Positions 12,609 through 16,248 of a stretch of DNA of 64,000 nt are shown here, piece by piece; the first letter of the stretch is position 1, and each line of letters starts with the position of its first letter. The stretch spans positions 682,001 through 746,000 of the forward strand of contig NZ_CP035952.1 in assembly GCF_004214895.1 (NCBI RefSeq), written 5' to 3'. The translations under genes were made by a program, and so were the position numbers. The notes beneath the pieces were generated by a model that did no database searches, had not been told where the DNA came from, and worked only from the letters and a program-made list of their open reading frames with translations. This DNA is from Pseudomonas tructae (GTDB lineage: Bacteria > Pseudomonadota > Gammaproteobacteria > Pseudomonadales > Pseudomonadaceae).

Positions 12609-13064
12609 TCAGGCAAAGCCCTGCTGACGCCACGCTTCATACACCGTCACCGCGACAGTATTGGACAGGTTCAAGCTGCGGCAGCCCGGGCGCATCGGCA
12701 GGCGCAGGCGTTGCTCGGTGGGCAGGCTGTCCAGCACGTCGGCAGGCAAACCGCGGCTTTCCGGGCCGAACAGAAAGGCGTCACCCGGCTGGAAAGCGGT
12801 TTCATGGTACGGGTGCGAGGCTTTTGTGGTGAAGGCGAACACGCGTGGCTGGCCCAGGCTTTCCAGGCAGCTGGACAGGTCTACGTGGCGCTTGAGCGTG
12901 GCATACTCGTGGTAGTCCAGACCGGCCCGGCGCAAGCGCTTGTCGTCCAGTTCGAAGCCGATCGGCTCGATCAGGTGCAGGTGGCAGCCGCTGTTGGCAC
13001 ACAGTCTGATGATGTTGCCGGTATTCGGCGGAATCTCTGGTTGAAAGAGGATGACGTGAAACAT
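12609..13064 (-). CDS. trmL: TrmL, tRNA (cytidine34-2'-O)-methyltransferase
   Basis: The 151-residue SPOUT-class enzyme begins [18 protein letters not shown]. It carries the knot motifs [11 protein letters not shown] (about 103-113) and [15 protein letters not shown] (about 124-138), which bind S-adenosylmethionine. It methylates the wobble base of leucine tRNAs. The ATG at 13064 gives the standard length, with CGGAG seven bases upstream. That ribosome-binding site lies inside the divergent gene, whose own ATG overlaps this one by two bases. Confidence 0.95.
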
Positions 13065-13500
13065 GCACGGCTCCGAACATAAAGATGGTGAGCATTCTAC
13101 TCCTGAACCGGACCCGCGTTCGCAGCTATGGCCGCGCGTACTGTTTTCCCTGGCGCTGTTCGGCATGCTGGTGGGGCTGATGATCGGTCGTATTACTGCT
13201 CCCGAGCCGCGGGTGCTGGAGCAGGTAGAGGTGTTCGAGGCGGGGTTGAACCTGTGGTTCAACGAAGAGCCCAAGCTGCACGGCGAAGAGGTCGAAGGCA
13301 CCCTGGCGCTGTTGTTCGAGGCCGAGGGCAAGGCTGCGCGCGGGCAGTTGCAGTTGCAGGGTAAGCCGGTGAGCTGGCGGGTGCAGCACAGCGATGGCGG
13401 CTTGCTCGTGACCCTGGTCGCGGCCCGCCCCCTGCACGGCGAGTGGATCGGTGCAGAGGAGGGCGGACGCTGGCGGGTGCAGGTGAAGCTGCGTGAATAA
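13063..13500 (+). CDS. Small single-pass membrane protein of unknown function
   Basis: The 145-residue product has a polar N-terminus, one transmembrane helix at about 25-43 ([18 protein letters not shown]) and a C-terminal domain of about 100 residues that would face the periplasm. Codon usage is Pseudomonas-like, which supports a real gene. I do not recognise the domain. The ATG at 13063-13065 overlaps the trmL ATG on the other strand, and AGAGGA about 12 bases upstream serves as ribosome-binding site. No other ATG, GTG or TTG keeps the helix with a better site. The stop is followed by the sRNA candidate downstream of ntrC. Confidence 0.7.
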
Positions 13501-13551
13501 AAGAGGGGATTCCCCGGCCTGCCTGTACCAAGGCCCCCAAAACTGGAAGTA
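13497..13551 (-). ncRNA. Candidate NtrC/sigma-54-dependent small RNA (NrsZ-like) downstream of ntrC
   Basis: A sigma-54 type promoter at 13563-13577 would start transcription at about 13551 on the minus strand. The RNA would contain a GCCT-TGGTAC-AGGC hairpin and end at GGGGA-A-TCCCC followed by TCTTTTATT (13515 down to about 13496). In P. aeruginosa the nitrogen-regulated sRNA NrsZ lies in the intergenic region after ntrC and depends on NtrBC and RpoN; position, orientation with ntrC and promoter type fit that. Length and 3' end are inferred, and I could not compare with NrsZ sequence. The end of the transcript touches the stop of the convergent small membrane protein gene. Confidence 0.5.
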
Positions 13552-13562
13552 CTGATACTAAG

Positions 13563-13577
13563 GCAGGGTGTGTGCCA
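13563..13577 (-). promoter_or_regulatory. Sigma-54 (-24/-12) promoter of the sRNA candidate
   Basis: Minus-strand TGGCAC-N5-CTGC matches the -24 element perfectly and the -12 element at all but one base (consensus TTGC). It lies in the non-coding gap between ntrC and the small membrane protein gene. Confidence 0.55.
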
Positions 13578-13661
13578 GTTTTATTGCAGTGCGCAAAATG
13601 GCAGGTTTTGAGGGGGTGGGTAGGGTTTTTGAGGGGATTTGTGCCTTGCTGCGGTGCGCAC

Positions 13662-13678
13662 GGCACAGCATCGGTGCA
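13662..13678 (-). promoter_or_regulatory. NtrC-binding site upstream of the sRNA candidate
   Basis: Minus-strand TGCACCGATGCTGTGCC resembles the NtrC consensus TGCACC-N4-TGGTGCA, with the left half complete and GTGC kept in the right half. It is centred about 119 bp upstream of the predicted start at 13551, a normal enhancer distance. Confidence 0.5.
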
Positions 13679-13683
13679 AAAAG

Positions 13684-13722
13684 CATCGCGGGGCAAGCCC
13701 GCTCCCGCAGAGTGGGGGCGGG
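13684..13722. repeat. REP palindrome (decayed pair)
   Basis: TCGCGGGGCAAGCCCGCTCC is followed by CGCAG and a shortened inverted partner (GTGGGGGCGGGCT). It lies between ntrC and the sRNA promoter region, with one mismatch against the common P. putida REP arm. Confidence 0.8.
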
Positions 13723-13729
13723 CTGATGC

Positions 13730-15162
<1,433 letters not shown>

Positions 15163-15166
<4 letters not shown>

Positions 15167-16248
15167 GAGGCGTTGGCTCCTTGTTCCAGCGGCAGGAAGA
15201 TCGAGAAAGTGGTGTGGCCAGGGTGGCTGTCACATTCGATCAGGCCCTGGTGCTGGCTGATGATGTTCTGGGTAATGGCCAGGCCCAGCCCGGTACCGTC
15301 CGGACGGCCGCTGACCATGGGGTAGAAGATGGTTTCCTGCAGCTCGGCAGGGATGCCGGGGCCGTTGTCGATGATCTCGATGCGGGCCACCAGGCGGTGA
15401 CGGGTGTGGCCTATGGTGAATTGGCGCATGGCCCGGGTGCGCAGGCTGATGCGCCCCAGGCGCAGCTCGTTCTGGCCGCTGATCGCCTGCATGGCGTTGC
15501 GCACGATGTTCAGTACCGCCTGGATCATCTGCTCACGGTCGATCAGTACATCCGGCAGGCTCGGGTCGTAGTCGCGCACCAGGGTGATCCCACCCTGGCT
15601 TTCGGCATCGACCAGGCTGCAGACCCGCTCCAGCACTTCGTGAATGTTGGTCATGGCCAGCGACGGCAGCTTGTTCGAGCCGAGCATGCGGTCCACCAGG
15701 TTGCGCAGGCGATCGGCCTCTTCGATGATCACATTGGTGTAATCCTTAAGGCCTTCTTCGGGTAGCTCGCGGGCCAGCAACTGGGCGGCGCCGCGAATGC
15801 CGCCGAGCGGGTTCTTGATTTCGTGAGCCAGGCCGCGCACCAGCATCTTGGTGGTTTCCTGCTTGGACAACTGGGCCTCTTCCTTGGTGATGCGCAGCAG
15901 TCGGTCGCGCGGGTGCACTTCCAGCAGCAGCAAGGTCGAGCCTTTGCTGAGGATCGGCGTCACCGCGTAGTCGACGGTCTGGGTCTGCCCGGTCAGCGAG
16001 GTCAACTGGGCTTCACGCTTGGTGAAGGGGTGCGCCTGTTCCACCGCCTGGCGCAGGGAGTTCAGCGCCTCGGGCGATTCGGTGAACAGCTCGCTGATGA
16101 ACTGCCCATGGCTGCGCTGGCCGCTGATGGCCAGGAGCATTTCCGCCGCCGGGTTCATGTATTCGAGACGCAACTGGGCGTCGAGCAGGATGGTGGCGGT
16201 GGTCAGGTTGTCCAGTAGCAGTCGGTGCAGTGCATCGCTGATGGTCAT
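15163..16248 (-). CDS. ntrB: NtrB, nitrogen-sensing histidine kinase
   Basis: The soluble 361-residue kinase has an N-terminal PAS domain (about 5-115), a dimerisation/phosphoacceptor helix with His142 in LAHEIKNPLGG, and an ATPase domain. The latter shows the N box (NIVRNAMQAI), G1 (DNGPGIP) and G2 (GTGLGLAI). PII proteins normally control whether it phosphorylates or dephosphorylates NtrC. It has no membrane segment. It is followed by ntrC with a 4-bp overlap, indicating translational coupling. The ATG at 16248 gives the family-standard N-terminus. Confidence 0.97.

What the first reader, a model, noticed from the sequence alone, without database searches (positions are those of the whole stretch)
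13497..13678. NtrC/sigma-54-controlled small RNA candidate behind ntrC (NrsZ-like)
The sequence shows a near-consensus sigma-54 promoter on the ntrC strand, an NtrC-like enhancer about 119 bp upstream, and a short hairpin with a T-rich tail after the predicted start. All lie in a gap with no other gene. NrsZ of P. aeruginosa is an NtrBC/RpoN-dependent sRNA located after ntrC. That this is its counterpart, and that it is only about 55 nt, is inference. The RNA would also end at the stop codon of the convergent membrane-protein gene, so it could act on that mRNA in antisense.
Basis: partly seen in the sequence, partly recalled or inferred. Interest (0 to 1): 0.75.

Follow-up and report, generated by a model that had tools for sequence, protein, structure and literature searches.

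The report
Single-module NrsZ nitrogen-response small RNA
Behind the nitrogen-control gene ntrC this Pseudomonas carries a tiny (about 55-base) RNA gene that looks like the one-unit form of NrsZ, a known nitrogen-starvation RNA whose units number from one to eight in related bacteria.

Summary
On the ntrC strand there is a sigma-54 promoter (13562-13578), an NtrC-like palindrome centred 119 bp upstream of the predicted start (13662-13678), and a 55-nt unit (13551-13497): a hairpin with loop ACAGGCAG and a U-rich tail. Rfam NrsZ matches at 40.2 bits, E 4.6e-9, below the gathering score of 76.9, because the Rfam model spans three modules and this locus has one. A one-module covariance model hits 291 of 298 genus genomes, 1 to 8 times each. 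The sigma-54 site scores 11 or more of 13 in 112 of 114 distinct loci (9 of 2280 shuffles). Inner-stem pairing survives sequence change: 76 of 81 distinct modules keep all six pairs, at most 59 after arm swapping. The antisense idea is not: the overlap is mainly the convergent gene's stop codon inside the terminator tract. This is a one-module NrsZ, close to the 60-nt 5' unit that reviews call sufficient in P. aeruginosa. No conserved target was found; expression was not tested.

The parts
13497..13551 (-). nrsZ, predicted single-module sRNA (about 55 nt)
   Evidence: Rfam RF02695 40.2 bits, E 4.6e-9; module model R1 70.3 bits (the window's module is one of the 43 used to build R1); ends inferred from promoter and U tract
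13562..13578 (-). sigma-54 (-24/-12) promoter CTGGCACACACCCTGCC
   Evidence: 11 of 13 consensus positions; same element in 112 of 114 distinct loci
13662..13678 (.). NtrC-like palindrome (enhancer), centre 119 bp upstream of the predicted start
   Evidence: 10 of 12 positions; 59 of 114 loci reach 10 or more against 31 of 2280 shuffles; binding not tested
13505..13538 (-). NrsZ hairpin (outer 5 bp, 2-nt bulge, inner 7 bp)
   Evidence: fold; covariation
13519..13526 (-). 8-nt apical loop ACAGGCAG
   Evidence: alignment; AGGCAGG kept in 29 of 29 plausible modules read from 23 genomes of 11 other genera
13496..13504 (-). U-rich terminator tail UCUUUUAUU, overlapping the convergent gene's stop codon 13498-13500
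13063..13500 (+). convergent 145-aa small membrane protein gene, at the position that reviews give for PA5126 (not compared with PA5126 itself)
   Evidence: homologue found by tblastn at 70 of 93 distinct array ends; no Pfam or NCBIfam family
13730..15166 (-). ntrC
   Evidence: TIGR01818, 791.8 bits over cut-off 558.6
15163..16248 (-). ntrB
   Evidence: NF008293, 398.8 bits over cut-off 240

Best explanation
This is the one-module NrsZ gene of this Pseudomonas. Under nitrogen limitation, phosphorylated NtrC bound near -119 would activate sigma-54 RNA polymerase at 13562-13578. A roughly 55-nt RNA would start near 13551, fold into one hairpin showing ACAGGCAG in its loop, and stop at the U tract that doubles as the stop codon of the convergent gene. 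The RNA would then act in trans by pairing its loop with CUGCCUGU-like sequences in mRNAs, in the way reviews describe for the first 60 nt of P. aeruginosa NrsZ. Shown here: sequence, conservation, pairing, promoter and gene order. Inferred: transcription, NtrC dependence in this species, and loop-target pairing. The target is unknown.
For: Rfam NrsZ hit as the only one in the genome. Module model R1 hits 291 of 298 genus genomes and 93 of 119 family genomes. Sigma-54 site in 112 of 114 distinct loci. NtrC-like palindrome enriched over shuffles. Inner stem kept with compensatory changes, 76 of 81 modules against at most 59 on arm swap. Same neighbours: of 148 nrsZ loci (redundant ones included) 105 have ntrC at over 70% identity and 120 have trmL in the stretch held. 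Reviews report NrsZ of PAO1 in the ntrC-PA5126 gap, NtrBC/RpoN-dependent, highly conserved among Pseudomonads, first 60 nt sufficient, conserved motif ACAGGCAG (passages).
Against: Below the Rfam gathering score (40.2 against 76.9). Fold energy not better than shuffles (z -0.08). The window's promoter misses two consensus positions (the first T of TTGC and the A/T after it); no relative scored 13 of 13, but 105 of 114 score one more than the window. In 43 of 148 loci no ntrC over 70% lies within the stretch held, and an NtrC-like site of 10 of 12 is missed in 55 of 114. No conserved target was found. No expression data.
Confidence: 0.88

Rival explanations
1. NrsZ works by binding a protein (a sponge or decoy), with loop number setting capacity, not by pairing with mRNAs.
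For: The loop core AGGCAGG stays while stems change. The same loop is repeated up to 8 times. My target search found no conserved mRNA site.
Against: Reviews report post-transcriptional activation of rhlA by the first 60 nt, with an apparent interaction in its 5'UTR (passages). Processing into single modules does not need multivalency. No such protein is known to me. One Hfq CLIP study lists NrsZ among Hfq-associated sRNAs of P. aeruginosa, its enrichment between conditions not significant (passage).
Confidence: 0.15
2. The RNA acts mainly as a cis-antisense regulator of the convergent membrane-protein mRNA.
For: The stop codon of that gene lies in the terminator tract in 66 of 70 distinct tails with a homologue. 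The + strand shows no U run after the complementary hairpin (sequence), so read-through transcripts would be antisense to nrsZ.
Against: The overlap with the coding sequence is only a few bases. nrsZ with promoter and loop is kept where tblastn found no homologue of this gene (L142, L143, L146, L150 and others; in L165 and L199 a diverged version is visible further off). The best conserved part is the loop.
Confidence: 0.07
3. No RNA gene: a transcription terminator for the convergent or ntrC transcript next to an unrelated sigma-54 site.
For: Hairpin plus U tract looks like a terminator; fold energy is ordinary.
Against: Promoter-to-loop spacing is 47-51 or 63-66 nt in 111 of 114 loci, the loop core is conserved, the unit is repeated in tandem, and Rfam NrsZ matches.
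Confidence: 0.03

Closest known systems
NrsZ of Pseudomonas aeruginosa PAO1 (Wenner et al. 2014, not held; seen through passages of reviews PMC9308961 and PMC8395346; Rfam RF02695)
   Same: Gene order (gap between ntrC and the next, convergent gene), sigma-54 promoter, NtrC-like upstream site, hairpin with loop ACAGGCAG, U-rich tail.
   Different: One module of about 55 nt, where PAO1 makes at least 226 nt with shorter forms of about 140 and 40 nt. Expression and target untested here; rhlA was not looked for.
CrcZ (CbrAB-activated sRNA of Pseudomonas, passage; sigma-54 dependence and protein titration recalled)
   Same: sRNA gene with a sigma-54 promoter and its own response regulator.
   Different: Different regulator and gene place; acts by titrating a protein (recalled). 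Not compared by sequence; Rfam at gathering score reports no family anywhere in the window.
GlnZ-type sRNA of enterobacteria (eLife 2022, PMC9731577; title and start of abstract in the listing; the name GlnZ is recalled)
   Same: Nitrogen-response sRNA.
   Different: Released from the glutamine synthetase mRNA 3'UTR by that title; not compared by sequence.

Membership tests
NrsZ (module-level family at this locus) | Hairpin module with apical loop ACAGGCAG and U-rich 3' tail | tested here: met
NrsZ (module-level family at this locus) | sigma-54 promoter at a set distance from the first loop | tested here: met
   window 11 of 13; 112 of 114 distinct loci at 11 or more
NrsZ (module-level family at this locus) | NtrC binding site upstream | tested here: inconclusive
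   Good motif at -119; binding not testable here, and a good motif is not seen in 55 of 114 loci
NrsZ (module-level family at this locus) | Gene in the gap behind ntrC, before a convergent gene (PA5126 in PAO1) | tested here: met
   the PAO1 place is from review passages; the convergent protein was not compared with PA5126
NrsZ (module-level family at this locus) | Induced by nitrogen limitation through NtrBC and RpoN | not testable with these tools
   needs RNA data
NrsZ (module-level family at this locus) | Post-transcriptional control of a target such as rhlA | not tested
   rhlA not searched; a narrow search for other targets gave no conserved hit
Rfam RF02695 as curated (236 positions, three modules) | Score at or above gathering threshold 76.9 bits | tested here: not met
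   40.2 bits, essentially only the first module aligned. By curated score it is not an RF02695 hit. In the genus 389 of 398 genomes have a match at E 0.01 and 273 of 398 reach the threshold
Twister-sister ribozyme RF02681 | Score at or above gathering threshold 34 bits | tested here: not met
   26.2 bits at 13658-13742 (+), overlaps the REP element, several non-canonical pairs

The most novel reading that the evidence does not exclude
NrsZ is a modular RNA whose dose, or number of identical loops, is tuned by tandem copy number (1 to 8 in one genus). The single-module species are natural minimal forms with a core target shared by the whole family, different from rhlA, recognised through AGGCAGG.
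Probability: 0.35. Interest if true: 0.55.

Novelty: new member of a known kind. Interest (0 to 1): 0.4.

Why it matters
It turns a tool-less guess into a well-supported gene call. It also shows that the curated Rfam threshold leaves out one-module NrsZ genes such as this one: 116 of the 389 genus genomes with a match do not reach it (their module numbers were not matched one by one). The natural one-module form offers a simple system for asking what NrsZ does outside P. aeruginosa, and module-number variation behind a near-constant promoter makes the value of extra modules testable.

Tried and rejected
Fold energy of the single sequence as evidence: z -0.08, not informative.

First module alignment A1 used wrong window coordinates (shifted by 9 bases) and was replaced by A2. 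Modules in A2 were picked by a pattern that required the loop, so loop invariance in A2 is by construction. Searches are a fairer test, although the model itself still favours that loop. The 81 modules were also picked by a pattern (AGGCAGG core, limits on a few neighbouring bases, a T-rich stretch downstream), so the U-G closing pair is partly by construction and modules with longer loops (L334, L335) or another closing base (L354) are left out; the arm-swap control has the same limits.

Targets: CTGCCTGT within 25 nt before ATG gave 68 rows in the own genome, against 11 for the tool's backward-pattern control. I fetched the stretches for the rows (loci) and kept ATG reading frames of 50 aa or more. 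Most of these sites lie inside longer open frames. I judged two to be real start regions, by frame and codon composition, without annotation: an MiaE-like gene and a large mechanosensitive-channel-like gene (names recalled). Neither site is conserved beyond near relatives. For the first, CTGCCTG lies in the 60 nt upstream plus the first 12 nt in 7 of 30 loci, 5 of them (own genome included) with the site in the same place. For the second it does so in 6 of 30, 3 of them (own genome included) with the same CTGCCTGTAC (30 loci each, of 97 and 99 genomes with a match). Sites in coding sequence, further upstream, with GTG/TTG starts or with mismatches were not examined genome-wide. A scan of the window for CTGCCTG near plausible starts printed none.

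Order-level search: 6 of 145 genomes matched; 5 are of the same family (own genome included) and the sixth (L355) is a plain terminator without the loop.

Twister-sister hit: sub-threshold and on a REP element, rejected.

Not resolved: the primary NrsZ paper is not held, so I cannot say whether it already reported module-number variation. The term NrsZ occurs in 30 papers of the library, several of them unrelated; I read passages of six, and those passages do not mention module numbers outside P. aeruginosa. One search was uninformative (8,681 papers hold any two of its terms; none of the 15 listed holds NrsZ). One search listed 15 of 16 papers; beyond those already named I read none.

Full report
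WHAT IS THERE. The gap between the convergent ORF 13063-13500 (+) and ntrC 13730-15166 (-) was read on both strands. On the ntrC strand, from 5' to 3': an NtrC-like palindrome at 13662-13678; a -24/-12 element CTGGCACACACCCTGCC at 13578-13562; a predicted start near 13551 (12 nt after the GC of the -12 element); the leader UACUUCCAGUUUU; a 34-nt hairpin (13538-13505) with loop ACAGGCAG (13526-13519); and UCUUUUAUU, with the end near 13497. The predicted product is about 55 nt. ntrC and ntrB are confirmed by NCBIfam equivalogs over their cut-offs. Beyond the convergent gene lies a SpoU-type methylase gene (Pfam over its cut-off) whose best NCBIfam match is TrmL, under that model's cut-off; I call it trmL.

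IS IT NRSZ? Rfam at gathering score reports nothing in the window. With relaxed thresholds, NrsZ (RF02695) matches 13549-13440 (-) with 40.2 bits and E 4.6e-9 (39.3 bits and E 2.1e-8 in the larger stretch). The alignment is essentially to the first of the model's three modules. It is the only NrsZ hit in the 5.69-Mb genome. In the genus 389 of 398 genomes have a match at E 0.01 or better, and 273 of 398 reach the gathering score. Reviews say that PAO1 NrsZ lies between ntrC and PA5126, needs NtrBC and RpoN, is at least 226 nt, is processed, is highly conserved among Pseudomonads, carries the conserved motif ACAGGCAG, and that its first 60 nt are a functional unit in the control of rhlA and swarming (PMC9308961 and PMC8395346, passages read). 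The original paper was not available.

HOW MANY MODULES. I built a one-module covariance model (R1, 57 positions, 43 modules including the window's own). It gives the window's locus as the only hit in the own genome, E 9.6e-19 (partly by construction, since that module is in the model). In 298 genus genomes the number of hits is 0 in 7, 1 in 80, 2 in 55, 3 in 115, 4 in 29, 5 in 6, 6 in 1, 7 in 4 and 8 in 1 (tallied). Among genomes at least 90% complete and at most 5% contaminated, 285 of 288 have a hit. In the loci read, copies lie in tandem about 60-90 nt apart; that all hits of every genome lie in one array was not checked. In the family 93 of 119 genomes and 15 of 19 genera match. At order level only members of the family do, apart from one false hit (6 of 145 genomes). 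The window's species is therefore one of the single-module ones. Stricter filters were used in the large searches, so zeros and low counts may be underestimates.

PROMOTER AND ENHANCER. Upstream of the first module, the best sigma-54 match scores 12 of 13 in 105, 11 in 7, 10 in 1 and 8 in 1 of 114 distinct loci. Shuffled upstream sequence reached 11 in 9 of 2280 trials and never 12. The distance from the element's start to the loop region is 47-51 or 63-66 nt in 111 of 114. The window scores 11. Of the two exceptions, L157 is a locus whose most upstream module escaped my pattern (compare), and L191 scores 10. The NtrC-like palindrome reaches 10 or more of 12 in 59 of 114 loci against 31 of 2280 shuffles; in the other 55 it is weaker or absent. 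Loci are related to each other, so these are not independent trials, and the shuffles keep only base composition.

STRUCTURE. On alignment A2 the hairpin shows compensatory changes, although modules were chosen by their loop; there 'pairs with a change on both sides' (4) was reached by 31 of 500 shuffles, 'further pair types' was not above shuffles, and cells paired and the covariation score exceeded all 500. In a wider ungapped set of 81 distinct modules, including distant genera, 480 of 486 inner-stem cells pair, and 76 of 81 modules keep all six inner pairs. Swapping 3' arms among modules gives at most 461 cells and 59 modules in 2000 trials. For 26 distinct inner helices the numbers are 21 against a maximum of 18. 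In 23 genomes of 11 other genera the model gave 32 matches, of which 30 were fetched and read. One (L351) was dropped as a chance hit without a terminator. The other 29 all keep AGGCAGG, while the 5' side of the loop varies in 13 of them. The sigma-54 element scores 11 or more in 19 of the 22 that are first or only modules (L337, L338 and L346 score 8, 10 and 10). Rfam reports no NrsZ at E 0.1 in the two divergent loci tested, L340 and L342. L342, like L339 and L343-L347, sits directly behind ntrC.

NEIGHBOURS AND THE ANTISENSE IDEA. Of 148 nrsZ loci held (redundant ones included), 97 have both ntrC (over 70% identity) and trmL, 8 ntrC only, 23 trmL only and 20 neither within the stretch. In L176 and L188 the genes upstream of nrsZ are TauD-like and an ABC permease (names recalled) and no ntrC was found in the stretch. 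So linkage to ntrC is common but not seen everywhere. The convergent gene's stop codon lies inside the terminator tract in 66 of 70 distinct tails with a homologue. Of the 23 distinct tails without one, 17 read CTTTACA or CTTTTACA, so the TAA is probably imposed by the ORF. This is a compact shared end, weak evidence for antisense control.

TARGET. A narrow search for CTGCCTGT close upstream of ATG in the own genome gave no candidate conserved beyond close relatives. The target in this species stays unknown, and a protein-binding role is not excluded.

VERDICT. A well-supported, nicely minimal member of a known sRNA kind; transcription remains to be shown. The points that I did not find in the passages read are the single-module form here, the 1-8 range of module hits in one genus, the near-constant promoter, and the AGGCAGG core in loci that Rfam does not report. 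Whether the original NrsZ paper already noted module-number differences I could not check.

Noticed in passing
13062-13065: The divergent genes trmL (-) and the 145-aa membrane protein gene (+) share the CATG palindrome for their start codons. The same one-base offset of the aligned first residues occurs in 107 of 107 loci (redundant ones included) where both aligned from residue 1.
   Followed up: partly
13686-13702: A REP element (GCGGGCTTGCCCCGCGA) lies between ntrC and nrsZ; the same 17-mer occurs at 14 places in the window, 10 of them in inverted pairs.
   Followed up: partly
13658-13742: Sub-threshold Twister-sister ribozyme match (26.2 bits, cut-off 34) on the + strand over the REP element; probably chance.
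   Followed up: partly
L339, L342-L347 near 1501-1559: Divergent NrsZ-like modules (loop TCAGGCAG, different stem) right behind ntrC in one related genus; in L342, the one of them tested, Rfam did not report NrsZ.
   Followed up: partly
L176, L188: Upstream of nrsZ stand genes that look like taurine-use genes (recalled names), with no ntrC in the stretch held, while nrsZ keeps its place beside the membrane gene and the trmL-like gene.
   Followed up: no
L142, L146, L150, L167, L169: nrsZ with promoter and loop at sites where neither ntrC nor the convergent gene was found by tblastn in the stretch held.
   Followed up: no
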